Assembly (NCBI RefSeq): GCF_932294415.1
Contig: NC_065544.1
Coordinates: forward strand, 27,977,210 to 28,041,209
Direction of reading: 5' to 3'
Length of the DNA stretch: 64,000 nucleotides
From: Quercus robur
Lineage: Eukaryota; Streptophyta; Magnoliopsida; Fagales; Fagaceae
Shown here: piece after piece, positions 37,766 to 59,640 of the stretch
Layout: every line of letters begins with the position of its first letter
How positions within the stretch are numbered: position 1 is the stretch's first letter
The notes under the pieces: generated by a model
What the model was told of the DNA's origin: nothing
The model's database searches: none
Seen by the model: the letters and a program-made list of their open reading frames with translations, nothing else
Program-made: the position numbers and the translations under genes

Positions 37766-39474
37766 TTAAACATTTAGAGAAACAGTGTCCATATACAATG
37801 CCTCAACAACGGGAAGGGGAGACTCCTCCATCCAACAGATATCATCAGAAATCAAGCTAGCATACCGAGCTAAAGAGTGGGCTACACTATTAACACTACG
37901 TTTAACACAACTAAAAGAAAGACTCCTGCAACCTGCTGCTAGTACCCAAATATCCCCATAAACATTACCCAGTCTGGACTTGATGGAGCGCAATGAAGCC
38001 AGAGCCCTTATAACCGTGGCATTATCACCCTCAACCTCCAACTCTGTAAAGCCAGCATCAACTGCAAACTCCAGAGCTCTCCAGCACGCGAGCACCTCCA
38101 CCTCTTCATTGTCCACAACTGTCGGTCCTTTCGCAGATAGCACCGCCATAACCTCCCCCATGTTGTTACGGATAACCACCCCAAAACCCGTTGAGTTCGT
38201 ATTGGTGAAGATCGCAGCGTCAAAGTTCAATTTGTAGAGCAGCCCCACTGGAGGTCTCCACGACTGCACAGGAGCTGTATTCACCGTAATCCCCAGCTGT
38301 ACTTGAGCCGCCCTAACCTCCTCCAGATAGTCTTTAGCCCTTTGGTTCAGTCTACCCAAGTCTTGGATAGCACCCCCATGCAAGATGGAGTTCCGTTGGT
38401 TCCAAATTAACCAACTTTGAACCCAAAACAATTCGAGCTCTTCATTGGTCAATCTGCCATGCAAATCTTTAACCAGCTGTAACATATCAGCGTGACCAAC
38501 CGTACCCTTTTGCAAGCAGCTCGTGCAACCAACCCATATGTCCTGGGCCAACCCGCAACCCCACAATGCATGGTACCCTGTTTCTGTAGCCAAAGAACAG
38601 ACACTGCACCTGGCATCCTCAATAATCCTTCTCCGAGCCAGATTCTCTCGTGTAGGAAGAATATCAAGGCAGGCTCTCCATCCAAACACTTTTATTTTAG
38701 TTGGGATCTTGAGCTTCCATAACTTCACCCAAACCGAACCTCCAATCACCCCCCTGAACTCTCTCCCTTATCTGCTTCCTGCTTGGAAATTAACCTTGCG
38801 GTGTGATATCCGGATTTCACCGTATATTCACCACTCTTTGTATGAAGCCAGAAAATTACATCAGGGACCTGTCTACGGCTTAAGGGAATTTGAAGGATTG
38901 CCTCTGCATCTGACCTCTGGAATTTAGACATTACCTCCTCACGGTCCCAAGAGTTTGTCCTGCAATCAATGAGGTCTGAAACACGCCACTCCCACTCTTC
39001 CTCCACTGGTGGGTACAGTACACGATTTGTGACTTGATTCGGTATCCACTTATCAGAAGTGACCCTAATTGCAGACCCATCACCCACCCTCCAACAACAC
39101 CCCTTTTTCAAAATAGTTTGTGCTGCCATTAAGCTCTTCCACACATAGGAGCTGTTAGGGACATCCGAAGCATCCAAAAAATTAAACTGTGGGAAATACC
39201 GTGCCTTAAAACACCTGTAGAGCAGATAGTCTTTTTCTTGAATCAATCTCCACCCTTGCTTAGCAAGCATAGCTAAATTGAAATCCTGCAAGTCCCGGAA
39301 ACCCATTCCACCTTCACGTTTAGGTAAGCATAATGCCCCCCAATTTTTCCAGTGAATCTTCCTTTCATCTCCCGTTTGACCCCACCAAAATCTAGTACAC
39401 ATGGCATTAAGTTCATGGCAAAGCTTTGCAGGAATTAGGAACACCCATTGTATATGTGGGGATTGATTGGGCAA
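37766..39474 (-). pseudogene. LINE ORF2 C-terminus: zf-RVT and RNase H
   Basis: Two frames (39,474-38,746 and 38,749-37,766) that overlap by a few bases hold the 'WRLIQEKDYLLYRCFKARYF' region, the zf-RVT domain (KLWKLKIPTKIKVFGWRACL, CSVCSLATETGYHALWGC) and an RNase H-like domain (NFDAAIFTNTNSTGFGVVIR, LEVEGDNATVIRALASL, VNSVAHSLARYA). RNase H Asp, Glu, Asp and the His region are visible. The single frame change near 38,747 is the only obvious break here. The plant LINE RNase H would remove the RNA template strand. Confidence 0.9.
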
Positions 39475-39723
39475 CAGCTTTAATCAATACTTCTTTGCCC
39501 GCTCTTGAAAGCAATTTCCCTTTTCACCCTTGCAACTTTTTCCAAACTCTATCTTTCAAAAAGGAAAAAGCTTGGTATTTTGATCACCCTAAGAGCGAGG
39601 GCAATCCTAAGTAGGTTTCAAATTTTCCACCTCCTTAATCCCCAACATATTTTTTATGAGTTCTCTTTGCCCCCCAGTTGTATTGCTGCTGAAGAACATG
39701 GATGATTTTTCAAGGTTGATACA

Positions 39724-40739
39724 TTAACCAGATGAGTCTGCATATAACTGAAGAATATCTATAATACACTGCACTTCCTCCTGGGATGCCTGGCAGAATA
39801 GCAATGAGTCATCTGCAAATAGTAAGTGTGAAATGCAAGGTGCACTCCTACAAACCTCCACCCCATTAAGCCTCCCTTCATTTTCTGATTTTGCCAGCAA
39901 AGTTGTAAACCCCTCTGCACATAGCAAGAATAAGTAAGGAGACAGTGGGTCTCCTTGTCTGAGTCCTCTCGAAGGAATAATGTTCCCGTATGCTTTGCCA
40001 TTAATGCAGACTGAAAATGAGGCAGTAGAAACACAGCACATCACCCTCTCAATCCATGTCATAAGAAAACCCAACCTGACCATTATACCTTTCAAAAACT
40101 CTCATTCAACCCAATCATAGGCCTTACTAACATCCAATTTTAGAGCTAGTGACCCCTTCTTCCCTGATTTTCCGCAGTGCATAGCATGCAGAGTTTCATA
40201 TGCCACTAACACATTGTCCATTATAAGTCTGCCTGGAACAAAAGCACTCTGAGTAGGGGCTATTAGCTGGGGAAGAATCTGTTAGCCAACACTTTTGAAA
40301 TAATTTTATAAATGACATTACAAAGGCTAATAGGTCTAAAATCAGAAATTTTTTTAGGAGACTTAACCTTTGGAATAAGAACAAAGCGAGTATAATTAAT
40401 TTCAGGAATCATGTAACCCGAATTTAGAAAATCAAGAACAGCAGCAATCACATCATCCCCAACAATATGCCAATATTTTTGATAAAAAAGAGCATTCATA
40501 CCATCAGGTCCAGGAGCCTTTGTTGATCCCATTTGGAACAACGCTGTTTTAATTTCCTCTACACTAAAGTCACTAGACAAAATATCCCGCATTGCTGGGG
40601 TCACCTTCTGTTGCACTGCATCAAGACATTCCTCCATTCTTAGACATGATCCTGAATGAAAAATACTCTCAAAGTACTCAATTGCCACACCCGCCACCTC
40701 TTCTAGTTCTTCCACCCAAATATTATGGTTATCCCTCAC
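39724..40739 (-). pseudogene. LINE ORF2 reverse transcriptase region
   Basis: Frames at 40,739-40,263 and 40,095-39,724 carry the RT order: MGSTKAPGPDGMNALFYQKYW, FVLIPKVKSPKKISDFRPISL, SAFVPGRLIMDNVL and LKLDVSKAYDWVE (both read at about 40,250-40,100), [13 protein letters not shown] and HLLFADDSLLFC with the catalytic Asp pair. Stops lie near 40,260 and 40,110. The region is otherwise well preserved. Confidence 0.9.
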
Positions 40740-40766
40740 CCCATGAATAAAATTCCTCCTCCGCCT

Positions 40767-41887
40767 TTAAGAAGCTTTGGAGTGAAAAAATTTAGTATTC
40801 TTGTCACCATGCTTCAGCCAAGCGACCCTAGACCATTGGGCCCAATAGATTTCCTGTTTGAGAAGTAAATCATCCAGTATCTTACAAGCAAACAAAAACT
40901 CAGACTTGTTTGCCACTGTCGGTTCAGCCTCACTTAACTCCTCCACCTTCTTTTGTACTTTTTTTATTTCTTCTGCATTCAGAGTAGTATCAGAAGCACC
41001 CCAAGCCTGAAGGGCTGATCCACATCTGCTGATTTTCTCCTTCATGCACCTCAAACTCGATTCCAAACTACCCATTAAACCCCACGCGTCAGTTATGACC
41101 TCTTCACAATCAGCCCTCGTTAACCAAGCCTCTTCAAACCTAAAGCTCCTTGTACTTTTGCCACGGCGCCTTAGATTAGATTTGGCATGTAGTAGTAAAG
41201 GCTGATGGTCAGATGCATAAGAAAAAAGATGGGTCATCGAGCTTGCATGAAATTTTTCCTTCCAACCCGTGTTGGCCACAACCCTATCCAACCTTTCCTG
41301 TGTGTTCTCCAGTCCTGGCCTCTTATTATTCCATGTGTAAGGATATCCAGTAAAGCCCAAATCAGCCAGCCTACAATCATCCAACAAATTACAAAAATCA
41401 TCCATCTGTTTAAACGAAGGAGGATACTTACTTTGTTTCTCTGATGAATGCAAAATTGCATTGAAGTCACCCACACAACACCATGGGCCATCAACAAAGG
41501 AGCGTAAATGATTTAGAAGAGCCCATGATTTGGTTTTTGACAAGCTTCAGGCCATCCATAAAAACACGTTAGCATCCAAGCAAAGCCATCTTCTTCCTCC
41601 ACTCTTGCTAGTATATGGTTGTCCGTAAAATTTATAATCTCCATCTTGACCTCAGATTTCCAAATAAGAGCTAACCCTCCTCCCCCATAAGGCTTTTTGA
41701 CAATAAACTTATTTGGGAAAGGAAGTTCGTTACAGTGTTTATTAAAACCCTCTTTTTCTAAGCGTGTCTCCATTAAGAAACATGCTGTGGGAGCTTGATC
41801 CCTCACCAACTTGTGAAGGCTACGAACTGTCCAAGAGTTCCCAAGCCCTTGGCAGTTCCAACTTAATAGCCTCATTGTGCTTGGCAA
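40767..41887 (-). pseudogene. LINE ORF2 endonuclease region
   Basis: Two overlapping frames (41,887-41,513 and 41,543-40,767) encode the exonuclease-endonuclease-phosphatase domain. RLLSWNCQGLGN carries the metal-binding Asn, METRLEKEG has the catalytic Glu, GDFNAIL holds the Asp-x-Asn motif, RLDRVVAN follows, and SDHQPLLL contains the terminal Asp-His pair. All key residues are present. A frameshift near 41,530 separates the halves. The product would nick target DNA for target-primed reverse transcription. Confidence 0.88.
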
Positions 41888-42450
41888 GGGTGTTCCTGCA
41901 CCCCCGCCGCTTCATCCATTTGAACATCTTCAAATTGTCTACCACGTTTCCCCACCTTACTGCCTGTGTCTGTATCTGCTTCAATTTCTGCATCCTGGAT
42001 TCTTCTTTTCCCCAATGATTATGAACTTGCTTGTGTTTCCCTTAACCTCGGCCCACACTCCATCCTAATAAGCCTGGTCCAAGTGGGCTTTTGTTTTGTA
42101 ACCTGAGGCCCATCTTGCCCCTTGCTATCCACGTGATCCTTAGATGGTTCTGGCTGCTTAACTCCCATGTGTTGCTCACTAGAAATATGAGATATGCTCT
42201 CATTATTTGAAAATGGCACCTCTGAGTTATTAGCCAATGAATGTGGCATCAACCGTTCCTTAATTGACACACCCGTTACGGAAACATGATCCGTGCAATC
42301 TGGTGATGCCCCTGTTTTCACGTCCTTTCCTTTTGCATGCAGGTCACCCTCTGTAGGGTTTGCTTCGTTGTGCACTAGCTCCGCCGCCGGCCTCACTTGA
42401 CTGCTGCCATTCACATTCTGCGCCTCAGCTGTACCTTCACTGCTTGGATA

Positions 42451-43228
42451 CTAGTTCTTGGCCGAGCCTATCCTTGAGGGTGAACGTGGACGACCACCTG
42501 CTGATTTCAACCACTCCCCATATTGACACCCTACCTCTCCGCCATTCTTGCTTTGTGCAAAATATTCAGCACAGTGCTTTAGATCATGGCCCAAGAATCC
42601 GCAAAAGTGACAGAACAATGGAAGGCGCTCATATTTAAAAGTAACCCAATACCTTTTCCCATCCGATCCACCAATAAAGCCACCCCGTCGAAGAGGTTTG
42701 GACATTGGGATTGCAACCTTAACTCTCATGAAAAAGTTCTGTGCTTCTAGTTTCTGTCGCTTCTCAACCTCCACCACCTCCCCCAAGCGACTCCCAATTT
42801 CAGATGCAACCTTAGGAGAGAACATGTCGAACGACGCCCCCCAAATCTGAACCCAAAGAGCAACCGAATCGAATTTGACATTTGCCGCAGTCATACCGGG
42901 CATCCACCTTCGCAACATGAGTACTTGGTTATCAAAAGACCATGGTCCTTCTTTGAAAACTCGGTCCATATCAAATTCCTTATCAAACTTAAACTGGAAG
43001 AGGTTGGAGCCTACTTCCACAATCTGCACCGACTCCTCTAATCCCCAAGCTCACCTAGTCTGAGCAACCCGTTTGTTAAACGATTTACATGTGAGAAACT
43101 TGCCTAGCAGACTCAGAGAACAACTTTCAATCTCGTCCCTCCTGTCTTCATCCAATATCGTTATCACTTCTTCTTCCTCCGTCGTCAACTTCATCTTCTC
43201 TAAGCCGTTAATGACATCTTCAGCCATG
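42451..43228 (-). pseudogene. LINE ORF1: DUF4283 and CCHC zinc knuckle protein
   Basis: ATG at 43,228 (context ccATGG) starts MAEDVINGLEKM. A TGA follows VAQTR near 43,055, and the same frame then continues (VEVGSNLFQFKFDKEFDMDRV, GPWSFDNQVLMLRRW), the DUF4283 fold of plant LINE ORF1 proteins. The zinc knuckle CHFCGFLGHDLKHC (residue pattern C-x2-C-x4-H-x4-C) lies near 42,610-42,570. The protein binds the LINE RNA. The frame ends at 42,451, and a further Ser/Thr-rich stretch (42,019-42,414) is probably the rest of the ORF1 tail after a stop. Confidence 0.85.
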
Positions 43229-43497: not shown

Positions 43498-43696
43498 TAG
43501 GGATGGCAACGGGTCGGGTTCGGGCCGGGTTTTTTGAAACCCGGACCCGACCCGCGGGTCTACTCCTGTTACCCGGACCCGACCCGTTTAATAAACGGGT
43601 CTTTTTTTTAGCCCCATACCCGGCCCGTCGGGTCTCCGTGGGCCCCGTGGGCCCCGTCCAGCCAGCCACTTCTGGGCCTAATCCGTGGCCCAATCT

Positions 43697-43729
<33 letters not shown>

Positions 43730-44637
43730 AATAAATAAATAAAAACCCAAACACAAACAGCAAAACAAATCAATCAACATTGTTGAAATGAGATTCTTAG
43801 ACAGAAAATAAATAATAAATAAACACAAAAAATAGAAGAAATAAAACACCATTTATCACATCAAAAAAAAAAAAAACTCCATTTATGGACCGATTTTTAC
43901 ATTAACACAAACATCAACTCCAATTCACATTTAAACCAACTCAAAATACACACATGCATTACATTCTATACAAATCGAATCCTCAAACAAATACCCAAAA
44001 ACTACTGAGAGAGGAAATGAACCCAAAACAAAAATGAACCAAAAAAAAAAAAATGAAGAACTCAGACCACTAAACTGACTAAAGCTCCATCGGCGGTGCT
44101 CCGATCTAACAACACGACCTCATCTCTCTCTGATCTAACAATCCCAAGCTCCGATCTATTGATTTAGTGCTCCTCCGTGACAAACGGCAACCACCATGAG
44201 ATCTTTGCTCCTCCACGAGGGTGAGGGTGGGTCGATGAATGAATGAGAGTGACGGTGAGGATTAGATGTGAGTGTGAGTGAGAGTCAGTGAGGGGAGGAT
44301 GAGATGTGAGTGAGCATGAGAGGGAGAGTCTGAGTCAGTGAGAGTGAGGCGGCTGAGTTGAGAGAGAAATGAGGGAAATGAGTTTTAGGGTTAGAGTTGA
44401 TGTATATATATAGGTAGGTTTTTTTGTAATTTTAAATATATCTAACCGGGTCGGGTACGGGTACGGGTTCGGGCCGGGTTTCTACCAAAACCCGGACCCG
44501 ACCCGGACCCGCTTCGGGTTTTTTTTTTTTTTAAAACCCAAACCCGACCCTATTCTTTATCGGGCCGGGTAAAATCCGACCCATTAGGGTCGGGCCGGAC
44601 CGGGTACCCGCGGGTCGGGTAGAAATTGCCATCCCTA
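43498..44637. mobile_element. hAT-type non-autonomous transposon with 8-bp TSD
   Basis: Ends are TAGGGATGGCAAC and ATTGCCATCCCTA, typical plant hAT terminal inverted repeats, flanked by a perfect 8-bp duplication AATAAAAT (43,490-43,497 and 44,638-44,645). Length is 1,140 bp. Both subterminal regions are dense in 'gggtcggg/cccgaccc' words in opposite orientations, likely transposase-binding repeats. No transposase frame is present. A (TA)n run lies at about 43,697-43,723. The perfect TSD implies a fairly recent insertion. Confidence 0.92.
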
Positions 44638-44649
44638 AATAAAATATGG

Positions 44650-45954: not shown

Positions 45955-46056
45955 TTGATCGCTAGGTTTCTCGAGGTTGGAAAGTACACCAAGCGTGTTG
46001 GTGCTAGTGCTCCGATTTATCTCTCCGTCATGCTCGAATATCTCACTGCTGAGATA
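45955..46056 (+). pseudogene. Histone H2A fragment
   Basis: The frame reads [20 protein letters not shown] then [13 protein letters not shown], matching the H2A core (IARFLKAGKY..RVGAGAPVYL..VLEYLAAE), helix 1 end to helix 2. Nothing H2A-like precedes it. After TAE the text 'ataactaaacattttggc' looks like an intron start whose donor GT has become AT, followed by T-rich intron-like sequence to about 46,215. This is a captured piece of a genomic, intron-containing H2A gene, not a processed copy. It is non-functional. Confidence 0.8.
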
Positions 46057-46059
46057 ACT

Positions 46060-46645
46060 AAACATTTTGGCTTTTTTTTGGTGTTTTGTGGGATGGGAAT
46101 TTTTGATATTGGGGGTTTGGGTTTTTGGTTATTTGGTTTTGATTGGTGGAATGAAATTAGGGTTTTTTTTTTAATGATAAATTTGGTTAGTTTTGATTTG
46201 ATGAATGTTGTATGAATTTTCATTTTCAAAATTAGGGTTTGTGTTTTGAAATGCTGGGTTAATTGGGTTTTGATTTTTTTGACGGAAATGAGTATTTTTT
46301 GGGTTTGATTGTTTTTGCATAGTTTTTGGAGGGTGACATTGGTGTATCTTGTATCTCTGAAACACCGGTGATGTTCAAGTCAACAATAACTGGCATATCC
46401 CTAATTAGACCATCTGAATAGCTCGAATGCACTAAAGATGCTTTCACTGAATGCATAGAGTAGCTAGTTGCTACTAAGGGCCAATCAATTAACAAGAAAA
46501 TTTAAAAATGGGACAATCACATATTCAAAACCCACTATTATTTTAGCTTCTACAACCATCTAAACTGATCCAAATGCCCCAAAAAAACAAGCATATACGC
46601 AAAGATCCGATCTGAGATTCAATCTTTTCAAAAATCAAACAAAAC
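46060..46645. other. Intron-like and unassigned sequence before the 25S copy
   Basis: T-rich sequence follows the H2A fragment. A minus-strand open frame (46,495-46,259; LLIDWPLVATSYSM..., PVIVDLNITGVSE) looks less random than most, but I do not recognise it. Confidence 0.3.
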
Positions 46646-47506
46646 CCATAATGGGTGGCAGGAGCATGCATTGCTGCTAGCCTGGATTTTGACTTAGACG
46701 TGTTTAGTCATAATCCAGCGCACGGTAGCTTCGCGCCACTGGCTTTTCAACCAAGCGTGATGACTAATTGTACGAATCAACGATTCCTCTCGTACTAGGT
46801 TGAATTACCATTGTGACACTATCATCAGCAGGGTAAAACTAACCTATCTCTCGACAGTCTAAACCCAGCTCACGTTCCTTATTGGTGGGTGAACAATCCA
46901 ACACTTGGTGAATTCTGCTTCACAATGATAGGAAAAGCCGATATCAAAGGATCAAAAAGCAACGTCGCTATGAACACTTGGCTGCCATAAGCCAATTATC
47001 CTTGTGGTAACTTTTCTGACACCTCTAGCTTCAAATTCCGAAGGTCTAAAGGATCGATAGACCACACTTTCACAGTTCGTATTCGTACTGGAAATCAGAA
47101 TCAAATGAGCTTTTACCCTTTTGTTCCATACGAGATTTCTGTTCTCGTTGAGCTTATCTTAGGACACTTGCGTTATCTTTTAACAGATGTGCCGCCCCAG
47201 CCAAACTCTCCTTCTGATAACGTCTTCCACCCAGATCGGCCTGTTGAGGTGAGCCTTGGGTCCAAAAAGAGGGGTAGAGCCTCGCTTCCGATTCACAGAA
47301 TAAGTAAAATAACGTTAAAAGTAGTGGTATTTCACTTTCGCCTTTCGGCTCCCACTTATCTAACACCTCTCAAGTCATTTCACAAAGTCGATCAAGCTCA
47401 ATAGGGTTTTCTTTCCCCGCTGATTCTACCAAACCCGTTCCCTTAGCTGTGGTTTCACTGGATAGTAGATAGGGACAGTGGGAATCTCATTAATCCATTC
47501 ATGCAT

Positions 47507-47549
<43 letters not shown>

Positions 47550-49791
47550 TATAGTTACTCCTGTCATTTACCCGCTCTTGGTTGAATTTCTTCACTTTGA
47601 CATTTAGAGCATTGGGCAAAAATCACATTGCGTGAGCATCCACAGGGACCATCGCAATGCTTTGTTTTAATTAAACAATCGGACTCCCCATGTCCGTACC
47701 AGTTCTAAGTTGATTGTTCGATGCTCGGGGAAGATCGTTGAGGCGGTCGTTCCTAGTCTGTCCCCCGGCCGGCACACAGCGACCTACTCTCACCGCAAGA
47801 GCAGCTCAAGCAGTCTGCCGACAGTCGATGGGTTCGGGATTGGGACCCCCATGCCCAGCCCTCAGAGCCAATCCATTTCCCGAGGTTACAGATCCATTTT
47901 TCCGACTTCCCTTGCCTACATTGTTCCATCAACCAGAGGCTGTTCACGGTGGAGACCTGATGCGGTTATGAATATGACCGGGCGTGGGAGGCACTTGGTC
48001 CTCCAAATTTTCAAGGGCCGCTGTGGGCACACCGGACACCACGCGACATGCGGTGCTGTTCCAGCCACTGGACCCTACCTCCGGCTAAGCCATTTCTAAG
48101 GTGGGCAGGCTGTTAAATAGAAAAGATAACTCTTTCCGAGGCCCTCGCCGACATCTCCAAACTCCCTAACGTTGTCGTCAACCGCCATGTCCCAGTTCAG
48201 GAATTTTAACCCGATTCCCTTTCAAAGCTCATGCTTAGCACACTATCAGACGAGCTTCCCCCGTCTCTTAGGATCAACTAACCCATGTGCAAGTGTCATT
48301 CACATGGAACCTTTCCCCTTTTTAGCCTTCAAAGATCTCATTTGAATATTTGCTACTACCACTAAGATCTGCACCTACGGCAGCTCCGCTCGGACTCACG
48401 CCCCAGGTTTTGCAGCGATCGCCGCACCTTCCTGCTCATCGAGGCCTAGAACTTGCCCTGACGGTCGAGTATAGATTGCGCGCTTTAGCGCCATCCATTT
48501 TCAGGGCTAGTTGATTCGGTAGGTGAGTTGTTACACACTCTTTAGCGAATTTTGACTTCCATGACCACCGTCCTGCTGTCTTAATCAACCAACACCCGTT
48601 GTGGATTCTAGGTTAGCGCGCAGTTGGGCACCGTAACCCAGCTTCAAGTTCATCCCGCATTGCCAGTTCAGCTTACCAAAAATGGCCCACTTGGAGCTCT
48701 CGATTCCTTGGCGCAGCTCAACGAAGCAGTCGCGTTGTCTTACCTATTTAAAGTTTGAGAATAGGTCGAGGGCATTGCGCCCCCGATGCCTCTAATCATT
48801 GGCTTTACCCGTTAGAATTGGCACGTGGGCTCCAGCTATCTTGAGGGAAACTTTGATGGGAACTAGCTACTAGACGGTTCGATTAGTCTTTCGCCCCTAT
48901 ACCCAAGTCAGATGAACGATTTGCACATCAGTATCATTGCAGGCCTCCACTAGAGTTTCCTCTGGCTTCGCCTCACTCAGGCATAGTTCACCATCTTTCA
49001 GGTCCCGATAGGTATGCTCTCACTCAAATCCTTCCCAGAAGATCAAGGTCGGTCGGTGACGCAACCCTCAGGGGGATCCCTCCAATCAGCTTCTGTGCGA
49101 CTTACGGGTTTACTGGCCCGTTAACTCGTACACATGTTAGACTCCTTGGTCCATGTTTCAAGACGACCCGAATGGAGAGCTCGGAGGCTGATGCTAGGAG
49201 TGTGCAGATGTCGAGGCGCGCCGTGAGGCATGCGCTGCCAGCCACGATCGTGGCAACGACATCTCTGCAGGCATAACTACAGCCCGGGCTTGGGCCGCCG
49301 CCACAATCCATATCAGTCCACGCCCCGAGTCGATTGGCAAACCGGCTATTGCCGTTCCACATCTGACCGGGGCACATCGCCAGCCCCCATCCGCTTCCAT
49401 CCCAACAATTTCAAGCACTATTTGACTCTTTTTTCAAAGTCCTTTTCATCTTTCCCTCATGGTACTTGTTTGCTATCGGTCTCTCGCACGTATTTAGCCT
49501 TGGACGGAATTTACCTCCCAATTGGGGCTGCATTCCCAAATAACCCGACTCGCCGACAACGCCTCGTGGTGCGACAGGGTCCGGGCACAACAGGGCTTTC
49601 ACCCTCTTCGATGCCCCCTTCCAGGGGACTTAGGCTCGGTCCGCCGCTGAGGATGCTCCTCCAGACAACAATTCGAATGTGAGCTATTCCTAGTTTGCTC
49701 CCCGTTACTAGGGGAATCCTTGTAAGTTTCTTTTCCTCTGCTTATTGATATGCTTAAACTCTGCCGGTAGTCCCGCCTGACCTGGGGTCGC
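46646..49791 (-). rRNA. 25S rRNA, near-complete dispersed copy (pseudogene)
   Basis: Reverse complement of plant 25S rRNA. It runs from mature base 1 (gcgaccccaggtcaggcgggac, at 49,791) to roughly 100 bases short of the 3' end near 46,646. The sarcin/ricin loop is at 46,783-46,796 and reads AGTACGAGAGGAAT, where the invariant C is T. Nearby CGCACA reads CGTACA, and many other C-to-T or G-to-A changes fit decay of methylated DNA. At about 3.15 kb it is some 150-250 bases short, so internal deletions exist. No ITS2, 5.8S or 18S is attached. The 5' end is fused directly to SPH gene sequence in the same orientation. It cannot be a working rRNA gene: it lacks an rDNA promoter and spacers, and core residues are changed. 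Confidence 0.93.
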
Positions 49792-49847
49792 ATTGGGAGA
49801 AGGATAAACACAAAACAATAGAGTTGGGCTATGATCATTTGACTCAT
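49599..49847 (-). pseudogene. SPH copy 1: signal-peptide end fused to 25S (chimeric 82-residue frame)
   Basis: ATG 49,847 begins MSQMIIAQLYCFVFILL, the signal peptide of the neighbouring SPH gene. The frame then enters 25S sequence (PMRPQVRRDYRQSL...) and stops at 49,599 after 82 residues. The rest of the SPH coding sequence is missing and does not reappear on the far side of the 25S copy. A TATA-like TTATAAATAA lies about 55 bases upstream (49,901-49,910), as in the intact copy. Any transcript from it would contain 25S in sense. Confidence 0.75.
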
Positions 49848-52120
49848 TTTTCTAGTGCTCAAAAAAGATATTTGGTAACACTTGAAATGCATTGCCCTTC
49901 TTATTTATAACTGGAGATTGTCAGCTGTACATTTACAAAACATGTTCAAATATTAAATGATTGGTAGACATAATGAATGCACATTAACTTTACATTAGGA
50001 AAATTGCACTGACCTCCTTTGAGGTTTACTAAATTATATTGACATCTCCCTTCTTTCAAATTGTTACCGAACATCCATAACTTTTCAAAAAGAATTTTTG
50101 CACTCACCTGCCTATAATGTTAAAACATTAAATCTGATATCAAAAAATTTAAAAATTTAAATTAAATATTTTGTATACATTTGCTTTTACCCTTCATTGT
50201 CAAAGGATATAGTTTGTGCAATTTCCTCTAGACCAACTTCGGCCTCTGCCCATTATTAGCTTTTGTAAACATAAATTAGTAAGAAAATTGTTAACTTAAT
50301 GAAATATAGGAATGCGTCTTGCAAATTTCTGGGTAGCTTCTATTCAGACTTAAATTCACTAAACAAGGAAAAATAATGCACCATAAAGTTTTTGATCATA
50401 TTCCTAAGAACAATGTTATTTTTCTTGGGAAATCTTATATTCATTTGTTGGGATATATTTAATTGTGCAATATTGATACATTTTTAGATTTTTGTTTGTT
50501 ATTGAATTGTGATTAAAAATATTTTCCTTTTGTTTCTAAACCCATATTGATAAGAAAATTGGATTGTCATTTGTAAAGGAGGATAAATATATAAATACAA
50601 AAAATTTTCTAAATTATATTTAAAATTCCTTTACTTGATGGTTTTAAGTTGCAAGAAATGTGATTGAAGTTTATTTTTAAGAACAAGGGTATTTTAAAAT
50701 TAGAAATACATGGGAGGCCAATGTAATTTTTGTTAACATCAATGGCCGATAGTGCAAATTTTTCTATTTTTATTTTTGGCATTCATTAACAAATGTCTTA
50801 TCAAATGCTTTTTGTGATATCCAACATTAAATATAGTTGCATATTAAGTGTCTTAGTAAAACATTAAATGCATTTCTAACTTAAATTTTCAATATTTACA
50901 TACTAAATTTGTTGCCATATAAAAATTAAAAAAAAAAAATTGCAATAAATGTGCTAGTTTAATATTTGCACGGTTGCACCAATTAATTTGTCTTACATTA
51001 ATAAATACACAAAGTGAAATTGTCATTTTTTAGTTATTAAATGTCTAGCATGAAACTTGATTGTTTTATAAAAAATGATTTGTCATAATTAATTTTTACA
51101 TATTAATAAATATGACTAGTTAATTGTCTAGCATTAAATGTACTTGCTTGTTAAATATCTTAGCACTAAGTAAATATACCAAGCAGTAAATTACTCCTAG
51201 TCTATTAATAAATAAGTTTGCTTAAACAATAATACAATGTCTACTTTTTTATTAAGATTTATTGAGGTAGTCAGGAGTTAATTTGAGATAATTGTAGAGT
51301 TTCAAAAACTAAAAATTATTTGGCTTTTTAGGGGGAAGATTATCGTGGTTGACAAAAAGGATTAACAATCACCTAATATCTCTTTCTCAAGATCTCTCTC
51401 GAATACTCAAATGTTAAATGTGTTTTATTCCTCCAGTTATATAGTGGGAAACATTAAGAATTTTGTGCACCAAAATCCAATTTATATGACATTATCTAAC
51501 AAATAAAAGGGGTTATCTTTTATAAGAATTATATGAACATTAAACACTATCCATATGCCTTGAGATGCATCTTATTTTATTTAGGTGTGGGAATGAGATT
51601 TGCACATAGAATATCTAAGGCCATGTTTGGTTTCACTAAAAACATAACATTTTTGCTTTCTGCTTCATTTGGTTGGTCTTGAACTAATTCTAACAGCACT
51701 GTAAATAACGAAAAGAAAGGAAGCTAGTAATGTGGGGAGGCAAGTTATAATTATCTCTAGAACAAAAACCATAACATACACACCATTACATAAAACACAT
51801 GGAACCTCCTAATTCTCATTCAAGATTTATTTTACAGAACTTATTAAAAGATTGAATCGTTAAAATTAGGATTTTTTGGTACATTGCAAAATGATTTTTT
51901 TTACTCTTTTGTGAAGTTAAACGGATGTTACAAAATCGAGTGTCTATAAAAACAAAAGTTTTTATTTTTATTTAATAAAAGGAAGGAATAAAAGACCAAG
52001 CCAATATTGATGTCAACAAGACTTCTATTTCAGTTAGGTTGCAAAATCCATATAAATTTCTCCACATAAAATCGTCAATTTTATTTCTTTCGATATGTAA
52101 ACATTTCACCACCATAATAT

Positions 52121-52700
52121 TTATTTGTTCCAATCATGCATCTTCCGATTTGTATTCAAATATGTATTATATAAGTAGAATCCATCCTCTTGTACTGTCC
52201 AAATGCAATGGTCCCCTCCACATTTGAATTCAAGACTACTATCTTCTATATAAACATCGAAAGAAGCACTAAAGTTTTCATAAAATAAAAAAAAATTAGC
52301 AGTAGAAATCTGTGGTACTTGTTTGCTATCGGTCTCTCGCACGTATTTAGCCTAGGACGGAATTTACCTTCCAATTGGGGCTGCATTCCCAAATAACCCG
52401 ACTCGCCGACAACGCCTCGTGGTGCGACAGGGTCCGGGCACAACAGGGCTTTCACCCTCTTCGATGCCCCCTTCCAGGGGACTTAGGCTCGGTCCGCCGC
52501 TGAGGATGCTCCTCCAGACAACAATTCGAAGGTGAGCTGTTCCCAGTTTGCTCCCCGTTACTAGGGGAATCCTTGTAAGTTTCTTTTCCTCTGCTTATTG
52601 ATATGCTTAAACTCTGCCGGTAGTCCCGCCTGACCTGGGGTCGCATTGGGAGAAGGATAAACACAAAACAATAGAGTTGGGCTATGATCATTTGACTCAT
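52121..52700 (-). pseudogene. SPH copy 2 with its middle replaced by 25S rRNA sequence
   Basis: Both ends of an SPH gene are present. ATG 52,700 with the signal peptide (MSQMIIAQLYCFVFILL) stands at one end. The other end is the C-terminal part FYENFSASFDVYIEDSSLEF, KCGGDHCIWTVQEDGFYLYN to the stop at 52,121. The approximately 195 bases that encode AFGQSTSF...TTDFY in the intact copy are absent, and 330 bases of 25S take their place. The frame from the ATG gives an 82-residue chimera ending at 52,452. The C-terminal part keeps its cysteines and most residues of copy 3. The TATA-like box (52,754-52,763) is retained. Confidence 0.9.
52315..52644 (-). rRNA. 25S rRNA 5' fragment (~330 bases) inside SPH copy 2
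   Basis: Sense on the minus strand from 25S base 1 (52,644) to about base 330 (ggtacttgtttgctatcgg, reverse, at 52,315). It matches the corresponding part of the 3.1-kb copy nearly base for base, including the private changes 'ctctgccggtag' and 'cccgttactagg'. The junction 'ggggtcgcattgggagaagg' is identical in both copies. The other junction (ctgtggt/acttg) shares the bases TGGT between SPH and 25S, a sign of microhomology-mediated joining. Confidence 0.92.
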
Positions 52701-54963
52701 TTTTCTAGTGCTCAAAAAAGATATTTGGTAACACTTGAAATGCATTGCCCTTCTTATTTATAACTGGAGATTGTCAGCTGTACATTTACAAAACATGTTC
52801 AAATATTAAATGATTGGTAGACATAATGAATGCACATTAACTTTACATTAGGAAAATTGCACTGACCTCCTTTGAGGTTTACTAAATTATATTGTCATCT
52901 CCCTTCTTTCAAATTGTACCCAAACATCCATAACTTTTCAAAAAGAATTTTTGCACTCACCTGCCTATAATGTTAAAACATTAAATCAAATATAAAAAAA
53001 TTAAACTAAATGTTTTGTATACATTCGCTTTTACCCTTCATTCTCAAAGGATATGTTTTGTGCAATTTCCTCTAGACAACCTTCGGCCTCTGCAAAATTA
53101 TTAGCTTTTGTAAACATAAAATTAGTAAGAAAATTGTTAACTCAATGAAATATAGGAATGCTTTTTGCAATTTTCTGGGTAGCTTCTATTCAGACTTAAA
53201 TTCACTAAACAAGGAAAAATAGTGCACCATAAAGTTTTTGATCTCATTCCTAAGAATAATGTTATTTTTACTGGGAAATCTTATATTCATTTGTTGGGAT
53301 ATATTTAATTGTGCAATATTGGTACATTTTTAGATTTTTGTTCGTTGTTGAATTGTGATTAAAAATATTTTCCTTTTGTTTCTAAACCCATATTGATAAG
53401 AAAATTGTATTGACATTTATAAAGGAGGATAAATGTATAAATGCAAAAAAGTGTCTAAATTATATTTAAAATTCCTTTACTTGATTAAACTGTTTTAAGT
53501 TGCAAGAAATGTGATTGAAGTTTATTTTAAGAACAAGAGTATTTTAAAGTTAGAAATACAGGGTAGGCCAATGTAATTTATGTTAACATCAATGGCCGAT
53601 AGTGCAAATTTTTCTATTTTTATTTTTGGCATTCATTAACAAATGTCTTAACAAATGTTTTTTTTGTAATATCCAACATTAAATATAGTTGCATATTAAG
53701 TGTATTAATAAAACATTAAATGCATTTCTAACTTAAATTTTCAATATTTAAATACTAAATTTTTTGCCATATAAAAATTAAAAAAAAAAATTGCTATAAA
53801 TATGCTAGTTTAATATTTGCACCAATTAATTTGTCTTACATTAATAAATACACAAAGTGAAATTGTCATTTTTTAGTTATTAAATGTCTAACATGAAACT
53901 TGATTGTTTTATAAAAAATGATTTGTCATAATTAATTTTTATATATTAATAAATATGACTAGTTAATTGTCTAGCATTAAATGTACTTCTTGTTAAATGT
54001 CTTAGCACTAAGTAAATATACCAAGCAGTAAATTACTCCTAGTCTATTAATAAATAAGTTTTCTTAAACAATAATACCATGTCTACATTTTTATTAAGAT
54101 TTATCAAGGTAGTCAGGAGTTAATTTGAGATAATTGTAGAGTTTCAAAAACTAAAAATTATTTGGCTTTTTAGGGGGAAGATTATCGTGGTTGACAAAAA
54201 GGATTAACAATCACCTAATAGCTCTTTCTCAAGATCTCTTTCGAATACTCAAATGTTAAATGTGCTTTATTCCTCCAGTTATATAGTGGGAAACATTAAG
54301 AATTTTTTGCACCAAAATCCAATTTATATGACATTATCTAACAAATAAAAGGGGTTATCTTTTATAAGAATTATATGAACATTAAACATTATGCATATAC
54401 CACGAGATGCATCTTATTTTATTTAGGTGTGGGAATGAGATTTGCACATAGAATATCTAAGGCCATGTTTGGTTTCACTAAAAACATAACATTTTTGCTT
54501 TCTGCTTCATTTGGTTGGTCTTGAACTAGTTCTAACACCACTGTAAATAGCGAAAAGAAAGGAAGCCAGTAATGTGGGGAGGCAAATTATAATTATCTCT
54601 AGAACAAAAACCATAACATACACACCGTTACATAAAACACATGAAACCTCCTAATTCTCATTCAAGATTTATTTTACAGAACTTATTAAAAGATTGAATC
54701 GTCAAAATTAGGATTTTCTGGTACATTGAAAAATGATTTTTTTTTACCCTTTTGTGAAGTTAAACGTATGTTACAAAATCGGGTGTTTATAAAAATAAAA
54801 GTTTTTATTTTTATTTAATAAAAGGAAGGAATAAAAAACCGAGCCAATATTGATGTCAACAAGACTTCTACTTCAGTTAGGTTGCAAAATCCATATAAAT
54901 TTCTCCACATAAAATCATCAATTTTATTTCTTTCGATATGTAAACATTTCACCACCATAATAT

Positions 54964-55392
54964 TTATTTGTTCCAATCATGCATCTTCCTATCTGTATTC
55001 AAAAATGTATTATGTAAGTAGAATCCATCCTCTTGTACTGTCCAAATGCAATGGTCCCCTCCACATTTGGAATCAAGACTACTATCTTCTATATAAACAT
55101 CGAAAGAAGCACTGAAGTTTTCGTAAAAAAAATAGCAGTAGAAATCTGTGGTCTTAAAAAGAGCGAGTTTAAAAGAGAATTCCCAAACTCCATTGGGTTG
55201 AAGAGTTCTAAGGCCTAAATCACTATCCGCAGATTTACAATGATAGGTGAGGGCTTTGTTGTTGAGATGGTCGACAATTCGCACATAGCGCCTTGCTGGG
55301 TAGGATGCTAACTTAAAAGAAGTACTTTGGCCAAAGGCTAAGAGAAGGATAAGCACAAAACAATAGAGTTGGGCTATGATCATTTGACTCAT
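54964..55392 (-). CDS. S-protein homologue (plant self-incompatibility protein S1 family), intact
   Basis: Intronless 142-residue secreted protein of the S1/SPH family (PF05938 type). Members are small disulfide-bonded proteins. The founder is the poppy stigma S-determinant, and most others have unknown roles. Start ATG 55,392 gives MSQMIIAQLYCFVLILLLAF, a signal peptide of about 22 residues. The mature part shows family blocks VRIVDHLNNKALTYHCKSAD (residues 37-56), LQPNGVWEFSF, TTDFYCYF, FDVYIED and CIWTVQEDGFYLHN, and ends DRKMHDWNK. Cysteines at 52, 86, 110 and 115 are those expected to pair. A TATA-like box lies about 55 bases upstream. An upstream in-frame extension exists but lacks an ATG. 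It is the only complete member of a three-gene array. An intact frame beside two wrecked copies suggests it is under constraint, or is simply the copy that escaped. Confidence 0.93.
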   Translation of the reverse strand: MSQMIIAQLYCFVLILLLAFGQSTSFKLASYPARRYVRIVDHLNNKALTYHCKSADSDLGLRTLQPNGVWEFSFKLALFKTTDFYCYFFYENFSASFDVYIEDSSLDSKCGGDHCIWTVQEDGFYLHNTFLNTDRKMHDWNK

Positions 55393-55443
55393 TTTTCTAG
55401 TGCTCAAAAGATATTTGGTAACACTTGAAATGCATTGCCCTTC

Positions 55444-55453
55444 TTATTTATAA
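55444..55453 (-). promoter_or_regulatory. TATA-like box of the SPH gene
   Basis: TTATAAATAA on the minus strand, kept at the same distance from the ATG in all three SPH units (also 52,754-52,763 and 49,901-49,910). Confidence 0.6.
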
Positions 55454-56417
55454 CTGGAGATTGTCAGCTGTACATTTACAAACCATGTTCAAATATTAAA
55501 TGATTAACATCAATGGCAAACAATTTAATTTTTTCAGTTTTTATTTTTGGCATTGATTAACAATTGTCTTAACAAATGTTTTTTTGTAATATCCAACATT
55601 AAATATAGGTGCATAGTAAATGTCTTAATAACACATTAAGTGTATTTCAAAATTAAATTTTCAATATTTGTATACTAAATTTATTTCCATATATCAATCA
55701 AAACAATTATTGCAATAAATATGCTTGTTTAATATTTGCACAAATTAAATTGTCTTACTTTAATAAATACACAAAGTTAAATTGTCATATTTTAGTTGTT
55801 CAATGTCTGGCATGAAACTTGATTGTTTTATAAAAAATTATTTGTCATAATTAATTTTTTATATTTATAAATATGAGTAGTTAATTGTCAAGCATTAAAT
55901 GTACTTCCTTGTTAATGTCTTAGCACTAAGTAAATATACCCAACAATAAATTACTCCTAGTCTATTAATAAATATGTTTCTTAGTCAATAATACAATGAC
56001 TACTTTTTTATTACGATTTATCGAGGTAGTCAAGTGTTAATTTGAGATAATTTTAGAGTTTCAAAAACTAAAAATTCTTCGGCTTTTTAGGGGGAAGATT
56101 ATCGTGGTTGACAAAAAGGAATAACAATCACCTAATAGCTCTCTCTCAAGATCTCTCTCGAATACTCAAACGTTAAATGTGCTTTATTCCTCCAGTTATA
56201 TAGTGGGAGGCATTGGGAATTTTTTGCACTGAAATCCAATTTATATGACATTATCTAACAAATAAAAGTGTTATCTTTTATCAAAATTATATGAACATTA
56301 GACATTATGCGTATACCACGAGATCCATCTCATTTTATTTAGGTGTGGGAATGAGATTTGTATATAGAATATCTAAGGCCATGTTTGGTTCCACTAAAAA
56401 CATAACATTTTTTCGGA

Positions 56418-59400
56418 AAGAAATTGACTTGAGGAAGTGTTTTTTGACAAATATAACTCTTTTTGGACTAAATAAATATATTTTTGGAAAATAAAGACCA
56501 CGGAAACCGTAGGGCTTGCATATGCATACATGCGTATGTGCACGCATGCTCAAGCTCTGCGTGTGCATACTTCATGTATGTGTACACATACACGGGGCAT
56601 GCGTGCACATGCTAGGGTTCCAGAAACCAGAAAGGAAAGGTTTTCCACATTAAAAACTTAGTTTGGAATGAATCCCACATCATCTGGAAGACACCCCAAA
56701 CCCCTATTTTCGACTATATAAAGCTTGAAATAGTAGATTTTCAAAGGAGGATGATTTCTGAAGGAAAATACACATGGTTCACTAGAAAATAGTGAATCAA
56801 AGAGGGAGTTTTTCACAAAACACCCTTAAGTCAATATTTTTCTAATTGAGACCTTTTATGGTCTTGATCTTCAAGTTTCAAAGGTTTACTAACTAATTTT
56901 GGTTTGGTTGTGACTAGATTGACTGAGGGGAACGGTCAAAATCAAGCTCTAAAGAGTTCTTGTGTTGTGGTAAAGGTTCTATCTTTAGCTCTTCACTTTT
57001 TCTTAGTTTTCTTTGATTCCTTTGTTTGTTCATATGTTTTATGGCTTTGATATGTCAGTTTAGATTAGGTTTTCATTTTGTTTTATGTCTAAAGTATGTT
57101 AGGTTGCTAGATTAAAGCTTTGGTGTTTCTGGTCTGCAAGTTTATGGGTTTAGGGTTTATGGCATGTATGTGTGCACATACTTATTGCATGTGTATGCAT
57201 ATTCGAAGTATGCGTATGCATACAACTGGGCTGTGCACGCATGCCCTATGTATGCGCACACATACTCTTGCTAGAAACCCTAATCTATGTATGCTTTTCT
57301 GTTTTTCTTTTTTTATTTATGCAACATGCCTCTGTTTGAGTTGTTTTTCACATCTATAAGTCTTTGGTTCTCTGTTTTGTTTTGTGTCATTTATTTTGCC
57401 TCTATGATGCTAGTTAGGATTTGTCTTGTTTGTTTACTATGAATATGCATGTGAGTATGAACATGTATTGATGCATAGGTGTTGTGATGCGGTGAGGTAA
57501 GTGAGGTAAGTCATGCATTCACATGAACATGCATTTGATGATGACATTGCCTTATGGATGGATATGGACATGCTTGTTTGAATGTTATGCGTTTTGATGT
57601 TTAGATCACTCTAATATGTTGATTCTACCATAACATGTCTCTGCCTTAGGATGTTTCTACCCTTAGAAATATATGTTTAATGCTTGCTTGCTTTAGATGC
57701 ATGCTAGGGTGTGTGTGAGTTAGGATAACAATGTTGAGTATGCCTTTAATGGGATTAAGACGTGAAACACAATGAGTGGAAGCCGACCCATGAGTCGGGT
57801 GAGGTTGGGTGTCTAACACCTTCCCATCCCTAAACCTAAACTCCGAACACGTGCTTTAGTAGTAGATTAATCCTTCCATGAAGGACGCTAATTGTGGACG
57901 CAAGGGGGGGGGGGGTCGAAATGGAGTCGCCACCTAGTTTTTGCAATGGTTTAGGAACCATATATTTAGCGTCCTTTCGAGGAAGGACCTTTTGATCTTA
58001 CTACCAGAGATAAGGGTTCAGAGTTAAGGTACAGTCTTGGGAAGGTGTTAGGCACCCAAAACTGCCAAACCCTAAGGTTGACTTCTTATCATTGTGTCTT
58101 ATGTCTTAATCCTAAAGGCACACTCAATACTTGTATCTAACTCACACACACGGTAACATACATCTAGCAATCAACATGGCATCAAACATCCCTAACCATA
58201 CATCTATCATGCTTGCAAACAAAGCCTACCATACATCTAATCATGGCACAACATCTCATCATAGACCCTAGTATTCATCTAGCTTGGCATCTCCTAACAT
58301 ACATCTAGCATGCTTCATCACAAGTCATATCACATCATAACATACCTTAACATAAATCTCATCATATCATCCCAGCATTCATCTAGCATGGCATCATATC
58401 ATATTCAAGGTAGCAACATGTATAATCAAATCAAGGCATAAGCATAAGCATAAGAAAAGATCAAGCAAACATGTGATTAAGCATAACTCATCCAAACAAG
58501 CATATTCATCTCTAACAAGCATATTCATCTCTAACACCAAAACAAGATCATATACAAATGCATAAACATTTCAAATGCATGACTTACCCTGCACTTACCT
58601 TGCAATAACTCAGCACCTATGGCCTCATGCATAAGCATATGAATGAATGATCATGTCATCAAAACAATAAAAACACAAAATAAACCATAATTCTATCATG
58701 TGATAGCAAACAAGCAATTAAACATATGAAACAGGGACTTTAAAAGAATAAAAACATGAAAAAAGAAGCTAAACAAACAAACATGTGAAAACAAAAGCAA
58801 AACAATCAACAACCAAAAATTAGGGTTTCTAGGCAATGGCTTGCGTACGCAAGAACAAAACTGCGTACGCATAATCATGCTTGCATACACAAGCAAGATT
58901 AAGCGTACGCAAATTCTTGCCCAAAAACAGGGCAGAACCTCAAAACGGGAATTCTAACAACCTAACATGCATTTTAAACATACAAATATATAAACCTAAA
59001 CTAGATAAACATGTTAAAGCATATTATAACAAAGAAACATGACAAACAGAAAGATTTAAAGCAGAAAAAGAAAGAAAGGAAAAAGAAAAGTTTAGATTAG
59101 ATACCTCAAAGAAAAGCTCTCCAAGCTTGATTTTTACCGTTCCCTTCAGTCAAATCTATTTAAAATTCAATAAAAAAAAAAGTGATTAGTAAAGATTAAA
59201 CTCAAAGATTAAGGCTAAAAAAGGCCCTAATCAAAAGAAAATTGACTTAAGGGTGTTTTGTGAAAAACTCCCTTTTGATTCACTATTTCTAGTGAATCTT
59301 AGTCTTTTGCTATGGGATTTCTGTGTGTTTTGAAAATATACCATGTAAGGCTTTTTATAGTGTGAAAAAAAGGGGTTTGGAATGATCCCCAGACGATGTG

Positions 59401-59640
59401 GGATTCGTTCCAAACCTCAACATAAATGCAAAAAACTTGCCTTATATAACTTTCTAGAAATCGCTATGCATGCACAAGATCAAGCCTACATACGCATACA
59501 AAAAGCCACATATGTAGGCTGATTCACGCTTACGCATAGTGAGGGTTTCCTTTGGCCTTATTTTTCAAAAACTGATATATCTGTTCATTAAATGTTATAT
59601 TTTTCATTTTAACACTTCTCAAGTCAATTTAAACTTCTGA
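56418..59640. repeat. Two copies of one repeat in inverted orientation (~1.5-kb arms), LTR-like
   Basis: The left arm (about 56,418-57,890) and the reverse complement of the right arm (59,640-57,975) share landmarks in the same order: aattgacttgag, 'cacatcatctgg'/'cacatcgtctgg', TATA-like 'actatataaag'/'actataaaaag', 'agtgaatcaaa...gggagtttttcacaaaacacccttaagtcaat', 'tagaaaccctaat', 'gggtgtctaacaccttccca' and 'aaggacgctaa'. The centre (57,891-57,975) has a run of about 12 G and 'ggagtcgccacctag', a phrase I associate with sequence next to LTRs of Ogre/Tat-type gypsy elements. The arms are likely two LTR-type fossils facing each other. They are clearly diverged, so old. Non-coding. Confidence 0.75.

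What the first reader, a model, noticed from the sequence alone, without database searches (positions are those of the whole stretch)
46646..55392. 25S rRNA sequence fused in sense into tandem SPH genes
Seen directly: three SPH units in tandem. In unit 2 the central ~195 bases of coding sequence are replaced by 25S bases 1-330. In unit 1 the SPH signal-peptide exon runs into a nearly complete 25S copy. All are in the same orientation, and the 25S part starts exactly at mature base 1. A start at the mature RNA end suggests that the donor was processed rRNA or its cDNA, not rDNA with its spacers. rRNA-templated repair of a break, or template switching during retrotransposition, would explain this.
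Basis: partly seen in the sequence, partly recalled or inferred. Interest (0 to 1): 0.85.

Follow-up and report, generated by a model that had tools for sequence, protein, structure and literature searches.

The report
25S rDNA fragment in SPH genes
In what is probably an oak-family genome, an old piece of ribosomal DNA became joined to the start of a secreted-protein gene and the joint was later duplicated; it looks like an ordinary rearrangement scar rather than proof that RNA was written back into the genome.

Summary
On the minus strand the first 17 codons of an SPH (S1-type) gene run into 25S rDNA at 49,791 (about 3.1 kb, 3' end missing) and at 52,644 (about 332 nt); an intact single-ORF SPH lies at 55,392-54,964. 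The host is most likely a Fagaceae. Three points change. (1) One fusion, not two: 49,460-52,316 and 52,313-55,152 are a tandem duplication, and unit 2 is its breakpoint (4 shared bases). (2) The 25S does not start at mature base 1: CCAAT precedes it, matching the ITS2 end CCAAC decoded from two reading frames of Quercus rubra rDNA ORFs. This removes the main argument for a mature-rRNA donor; a pre-25S RNA donor is not excluded. (3) The 25S is decayed, mostly by C-to-T/G-to-A change; a rough transversion clock puts the decay after the older SPH duplication and around or before the tandem one. Best reading: an rDNA fragment joined to a broken SPH copy during DNA repair, then duplicated. Both hybrids keep an open 82-codon frame, without evidence of constraint. 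Host rDNA, reads and transcripts could not be examined.

The parts
54964..55392 (-). Unit 3: intact SPH gene in one ORF (142 aa plus stop), Self-incomp_S1
   Evidence: named homologs mostly in Quercus and Castanea
52650..52700 (-). Unit 2: first 17 SPH codons
   Evidence: identical to unit 1, 1 base different from unit 3
52645..52649 (-). CCAAT, read as the ITS2 3' end with one CpG C>T, unit 2
   Evidence: ITS2 end decoded from Q. rubra ORFs P0054 and P0176
52313..52644 (-). Unit 2: 25S 5' part, 332 nt
   Evidence: cmscan 225 bits; 5 of 331 sites differ from unit 1
52313..52316 (-). Tandem-duplication breakpoint, 4 shared bases (TGGT on the + strand)
   Evidence: unit 2 follows unit 3 up to 52,316 and unit 1 from 52,313
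52121..52316 (-). Unit 2: SPH 3' part, lying after the stop of the hybrid frame
   Evidence: tblastn 87.5% over 56 aa; ORF 52,121-52,342
52452..52700 (-). Hybrid ORF of unit 2, 82 aa (17 SPH codons, then ITS2/25S)
   Evidence: no Pfam match up to E 0.1 for its 97-aa form
49797..49847 (-). Unit 1: first 17 SPH codons
49792..49796 (-). CCAAT, read as the ITS2 3' end, unit 1
46650..49791 (-). Unit 1: 25S pseudogene; 3' end missing (end certain to 46,666, about 46,650 by recall)
   Evidence: decay
49599..49847 (-). Hybrid ORF of unit 1, 82 aa
49460..52316 (.). Tandem block copy 1 (25S 5' part, SPH start, upstream DNA, SPH 3' part of unit 2)
   Evidence: 95.15% to 52,313-55,152
52313..55152 (.). 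Tandem block copy 2
55504..56412 (.). Upstream of unit 3, older duplicate of 53,583-54,496 and 50,733-51,654
   Evidence: 90.4% and 88.5%; 81 and 91 of 908 sites differ
45958..46071 (+). Histone H2A fragment beyond the 25S 3' break

Best explanation
A fragment of nuclear 35S rDNA (the last few ITS2 bases plus about 3.1 kb of 25S) was joined to the 5' part of one of two older tandem SPH paralogs. The likely setting is break repair in which rDNA acted as filler or as the other broken end (inferred). That SPH copy lost the rest of its coding sequence. The 25S no longer evolved as a gene and decayed mainly by C-to-T/G-to-A change. Later one tandem duplication, with breakpoints inside the 25S and inside the intact neighbour's coding sequence and 4 shared bases, made the second, shorter hybrid (shown by the anatomy). 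The hybrids are most likely pseudogenes; the neighbour keeps an intact SPH frame. The stated confidence covers DNA-level joining of rDNA whether or not the donor had already begun to decay.
For: Block duplication explains unit 2 fully. CCAAT equals the Q. rubra ITS2 end except for one CpG transition; the two-frame decoding has exactly 1 solution. Decay: 110 of 1467 upper-case Rfam consensus positions differ and 6 more are deleted; 70 of the 110 are C>T or G>A against 20 A>G or T>C (binomial p 1e-7). Order by transversions: older duplication 46/908 pairwise (2.5% per branch), 25S at most 20/1467 (1.4%), tandem duplication 44/2830 pairwise (0.8% per branch). No SPH sequence was found beyond the 25S 3' break. 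Annotated Q. rubra proteins P0087 and P0192 are translations of altered rDNA on long contigs.
Against: One end of the fragment lies only 3-5 nt from the mature 25S 5' end. Random breaks in a roughly 9.5-kb unit (assumed length) would put either end within 5 nt of any of six mature rRNA ends in about 1-2% of cases (my arithmetic). The tandem-duplication clock is uneven: transversions between units 1 and 2 range from 0/166 and 7/656 to 23/760 in different segments, and the fastest segment (1.5% per branch) would make the 25S decay no older than the duplication. The 25S keeps a CpG observed/expected of 0.81 against 0.32-0.54 nearby, so deamination is far from complete. The SPH/ITS2 junction shows no clear microhomology. 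No host rDNA could be read (genome search did not complete), so the DNA nature of the donor is inferred.
Confidence: 0.66

Rival explanations
1. RNA donor: a nearly mature pre-25S rRNA, still carrying 3-5 nt of ITS2, was reverse-transcribed (LINE enzyme or a repair polymerase) and the cDNA joined to the SPH break.
For: The 5' break lies within 3-5 nt of the mature 25S end, where an RNA template would stop. 5'-extended 25S precursors exist: 26S pre-rRNA in yeast (PMC2806520, passages) and 25S-C2 in Arabidopsis xrn2 xrn3 mutants (PMC10623804, passages). LINE-type pieces with RT and endonuclease domains lie in the window.
Against: Those precursors carry extensions up to the C2 site, not known ends 3-5 nt from mature 25S, and 5'-extended 25S was not seen in the nol12-4 mutant. 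ITS2 bases are present, the 3' end is internal, there is no A-run, no flush repeat of 5 nt or more (the longest shared word near the breaks is the non-flush 7-mer GTTTTGT), and no SPH sequence follows the 25S. The nearest LINE piece identified ends at 43,029, more than 3 kb away.
Confidence: 0.22
2. The DNA donor was already a decayed dispersed rDNA pseudogene when it met SPH (a variant of the best explanation; the two overlap).
For: 7.5% mismatch at conserved positions, many in non-CpG context. Divergent rDNA clusters are reported in oaks (titles of Muir 2001 and Mayol and Rossello 2001, seen only as citations in PMC4294445).
Against: Transversions in the 25S (at most 1.4%) are fewer than the per-branch value of the older SPH duplication (2.5%; p 0.018, uncorrected), so the decay fits the time after the fusion. 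In none of the 120 listed hits did I see the two replacements RRDYPLS to RRDYRQS of the window. The text of PMC4294445 also says that rDNA paralogs in oaks need not be pseudogenes.
Confidence: 0.25
3. The hybrids are young functional genes encoding a secreted 82-aa peptide, four fifths of it read from ITS2/25S sequence.
For: Same open frame in both copies. The 166 nt of 5' region and SPH start have 0 differences between units 1 and 2 (p 0.003 against the rest) and 2 of 164 against unit 3 (p 3e-5 against 91 of 908 upstream).
Against: The three differences between the two ORFs are two replacements and one silent change. The native stretch after LILL, LAFGQS, is lost. The conserved tract ends at heterologies on both sides, which gene conversion explains. 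No hybrid relative among the 120 listed of 148 hits. No transcript data.
Confidence: 0.07
4. Assembly artefact joining SPH reads to rDNA reads.
For: rDNA is a common source of misassembly (general knowledge); raw reads not available.
Against: The 25S is decayed and the two copies differ by 5 of 331 sites inside a tandem block that differs at 102 of 2830 sites.
Confidence: 0.03

Closest known systems
Dispersed nuclear rDNA pseudogenes and divergent rDNA paralogs (oaks: Muir et al. 2001, Mayol and Rossello 2001, seen only as citations in PMC4294445)
   Same: Decayed 35S rDNA sequence, rich in C>T/G>A change, in a probable Fagaceae genome
   Different: Here a solitary 25S fragment is joined to a protein gene and duplicated with it. 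A passage of PMC6526317 calls rDNA pseudogenes relatively uncommon across eukaryotes
Filler DNA and microhomology in plant break repair (review PMC8395108, search listing and start of abstract only)
   Same: Unrelated genomic DNA between two broken ends; 4 shared bases at the duplication breakpoint
   Different: The filler would be about 3.1 kb of rDNA; the SPH/ITS2 junction shows no clear microhomology
Retrotransposed (processed) rRNA pseudogenes, as described in mammals (recalled)
   Same: 5' break close to a mature rRNA end
   Different: ITS2 bases kept, 3' truncated, no A-run, no flush repeat, target gene not continued
SPH / plant self-incompatibility protein S1 family (PF05938)
   Same: Unit 3 is an ordinary member; tandem copies
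   Different: Unit 1 keeps only 17 codons, unit 2 these and the 3' part

Membership tests
SPH (PF05938), unit 3 | S1 domain over most of a small protein | tested here: met
   residues 42-145 of 147, profile 2-104 of 104, E 4e-25
SPH (PF05938), hybrids | S1 domain in the reading frame | tested here: not met
   no Pfam match up to E 0.1 for either 97-aa ORF
Dispersed rDNA pseudogene | rDNA homology outside an array | tested here: met
   LSU only in 64 kb at gathering score; SPH and H2A sequence on the two sides
Dispersed rDNA pseudogene | Loss of constraint at conserved positions | tested here: met
   110 of 1467 positions differ, 70 of them C>T or G>A; no functional plant 25S was run as a control, and part of the 110 are ordinary plant differences
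Dispersed rDNA pseudogene | Spacer sequence next to the rRNA part | tested here: met
   CCAAT against decoded Q. rubra ITS2 end CCAAC; only 3-5 nt, host ITS2 itself not seen
Processed rRNA pseudogene | Begins exactly at a mature rRNA end | tested here: not met
   3-5 nt upstream of it, depending on where the plant mature end is placed, which I did not look up
Processed rRNA pseudogene | Target-site duplication and 3' poly(A) | tested here: not met
   no flush repeat of 5 nt or more with the SPH break in 80 nt of the 3' side, no A-run at the 3' break
Tandem duplication | Block repeated head to tail with one novel junction | tested here: met
   49,460-52,316 and 52,313-55,152, junction TGGT

The most novel reading that the evidence does not exclude
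A nearly mature pre-25S rRNA served as template for repair of a break inside an SPH gene, and the resulting SPH-25S hybrid frame, kept open in two copies behind an SPH promoter region, is a young gene for a small secreted basic peptide.
Probability: 0.03. Interest if true: 0.8.

Novelty: new member of a known kind. Interest (0 to 1): 0.3.

Why it matters
As a duplicated rDNA-gene junction whose steps can be put in order, it shows how rDNA pieces reach single-copy regions and how one event plus a tandem duplication can look like two. If an RNA donor were proved it would be a natural example of rRNA-templated repair in a plant.

Tried and rejected
Two independent 25S insertions: rejected, because one block duplication explains unit 2. 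A signal-peptide exon: rejected, because unit 3 is one ORF. A donor decayed long before the fusion: my first idea from the 7.5% mismatch; the transversion clock argues against it but does not exclude it. Capture by a transposon with terminal inverted repeats: of the 25 longest of 35 inverted pairs in 40-64 kb, four (I11, I14, I17, I19) do span the 25S/SPH block, but they are 21-33 nt, 73-90% complementary and AT-rich, so I take them as chance; no long pair flanks the block. H2A as the interrupted host gene: one clear H2A piece in the window (the only other hit had E 3.5). A functional plant 25S for comparison: a conserved plant 25S pattern gave 0 matches in viral contigs and genome contigs, and the window's 25S gave none in plasmids or phages in 'near' mode. 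A hybrid SPH-25S protein elsewhere: none among the 120 listed of 148 hits. Literature: searches (3 papers; 0; 6; 10 of 14 listed; 1; 12 of 73 listed) showed no title or abstract start describing a plant 25S/protein-gene fusion; many papers are not held and lists were cut, so this is no proof of absence.

Limits: the mature 5' end of Fagaceae 25S was not looked up. Recalled human and yeast starts would put it up to 2 nt further upstream, so the spacer part is 3 to 5 nt. The ITS2 end comes from Q. rubra proteins on contigs of the same length (P0054, P0176), not from the host. That upper case marks strongly conserved positions in the Rfam consensus is recalled; the consensus is eukaryote-wide, so the 20 transversions are an upper bound. 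The count left out 49,358-49,131 and 47,825-47,720 (variable or poorly aligned) and everything below 46,666; the 33 pasted blocks were checked afterwards and all 33 match the window exactly. Transversion rates compare GC-rich 25S with AT-rich flanks, and the p values are uncorrected.

Full report
What is there. All features lie on the minus strand. Rfam finds LSU rRNA at 46,423-49,790 and 52,309-52,620 and no other family at gathering score in the window. The alignment of the long copy is solid to about 46,666; I place its end near 46,650 from recall of plant 25S. An intact SPH gene lies at 55,392-54,964, one ORF, Pfam Self-incomp_S1 E 4e-25. Of 42 protein relatives, the named ones are from Quercus and Castanea, with one more distant from Morella; many others carry no name. 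The host is therefore most likely a Fagaceae. The first 17 SPH codons recur at 52,700 and 49,847 and run, after CCAAT, into GCGACCCCAGG, the 5' part of 25S.

One fusion, then one tandem duplication. BLAST pairs 49,460-52,316 with 52,313-55,152 at 95.15%. The low end of the block lies inside the 25S and the high end of copy 2 inside the coding sequence of unit 3. Unit 2 follows unit 3 up to 52,316 and unit 1 from 52,313, so the junction shares TGGT. The apparent replacement of the SPH centre by 25S in unit 2 is therefore the duplication breakpoint. Shared orientation and shared 5' junction are inherited, not repeated events.

The 5' junction. Q. rubra protein P0054 reads ...ASTALPTRPQVRRDYPLS in one frame and P0176 reads ...IDGASNATPGQAG in another. 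Enumeration gives exactly one DNA sequence that satisfies both, GCATCGACGGCGCTTCCAACGCGACC, taking the first 25S bases from the window. The window has CTTCTC-CCAAT-GCGACC, where CTTCTC belongs to SPH. CCAAT equals CCAAC apart from a C-to-T change in CpG; the four other bases would match by chance with probability 1/256. The copy therefore reaches 3 to 5 nt into ITS2, depending on the exact mature end, which I did not verify. The closeness of the break to the mature end is still noteworthy, about 1-2% by chance for random breaks (my estimate).

The 3' break and the target. The 25S ends near ...CCTGCCACCC and continues in AT-rich DNA that leads to a histone H2A fragment. tblastn found no SPH sequence beyond it. 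There is no A-run. The longest word shared by the two break regions is a 7-mer flush with neither break, and no suffix of 5 nt or more of the SPH end recurs in 80 nt of the 3' side. This is not the anatomy of a simple insertion.

Age and decay. At 1467 upper-case (strongly conserved) Rfam consensus positions, 110 differ: 70 C>T or G>A (28 in CpG, 21 CHG, 21 CHH), 20 A>G or T>C and 20 transversions; 6 more are deleted. The bias (p 1e-7) is that of unselected, probably methylated DNA, although CpG is not exhausted (observed/expected 0.81 against 0.32-0.54 nearby). There was no functional plant 25S to serve as control. Transversions per branch are 0.8% for the tandem duplication (44/2830 pairwise), at most 1.4% for the 25S (20/1467) and 2.5% for the older duplication of the upstream region (46/908 pairwise). 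The 25S value is lower than the last (p 0.018) and higher than the first (p 0.042), both uncorrected. So the likely order is older SPH duplication, then 25S fusion and decay, then tandem duplication. The clock is rough: segments of the tandem block range from 0/166 to 23/760 transversions, and the fastest segment would put fusion and tandem duplication at about the same time.

Hybrid frames. Both hybrids have an 82-codon frame starting MSQMIIAQLYCFVFILLPMRPQVRRDY. Within it the copies differ by two replacement changes and one silent change. There is no Pfam match up to E 0.1 and no hybrid relative among the 120 listed of 148 hits in the protein collection. The 166-nt tract of 5' region and SPH start is unusually alike: 0 of 166 between units 1 and 2, 2 of 164 against unit 3, while the DNA further upstream differs by about 9-10% between unit 3 and the others. 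The tract ends at the 25S on one side and at a roughly 770-bp indel on the other, which suggests gene conversion; selection on the promoter is possible but not shown.

Mechanism. Shown: one shared junction, block duplication with 4 shared bases, decay, five bases equal to the Q. rubra ITS2 end but for one transition. Inferred: that the fusion arose in break repair with rDNA as filler or partner. A pre-25S RNA template is the main rival. 5'-extended 25S precursors are described for yeast (26S; PMC2806520, passages) and for Arabidopsis xrn2 xrn3 (25S-C2; PMC10623804, passages), but the latter paper saw no 5'-extended 25S in nol12-4, and the 3' truncation, the missing tail and the missing continuation of the target argue for DNA.

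Verdict.

Noticed in passing
49797-49962, 52650-52815, 55342-55505: The 5' region and SPH start are nearly identical in the three units (0 and 2 differences) although DNA further upstream differs by 3-10%; gene conversion or selection.
   Followed up: partly
52816-53582 against 55505: About 770 bp upstream of the hybrids are missing upstream of unit 3, joined at a short TT overlap; probably a deletion in unit 3.
   Followed up: partly
45958-46071: Histone H2A fragment on the + strand, 61% over 38 aa, running into an intron-like stretch; no second clear piece in the window.
   Followed up: partly
37769-43029: LINE-type pieces on the minus strand: RVT_3, zf-RVT, a weak endonuclease match (just below Pfam's cut-off) and DUF4283/zinc knuckle.
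   Followed up: no
18358-20422 and 24737-25312: Further LINE-type pieces (RVT_1, zf-RVT) on the + strand.
   Followed up: no
43500-44640: AGGGATGGCAA...TTGCCATCCCT ends around GGGTCGGGT-rich DNA, resembling a non-autonomous hAT-type element (family name recalled; sequence).
   Followed up: no
56661-59415: Imperfect inverted arms upstream of the SPH cluster (56,661-57,111 against 58,953-59,415, 71.6% over 472 columns), possibly a decayed DNA transposon.
   Followed up: no
8895-9599: Pentatricopeptide-repeat gene piece on the + strand, PPR_2 E 1e-44.
   Followed up: no
P0087 and P0192 (Quercus rubra proteins): Annotated proteins that are translations of altered 5.8S-ITS2-25S DNA, on long Q. rubra contigs, pointing to dispersed rDNA pseudogenes in oak.
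   Followed up: partly
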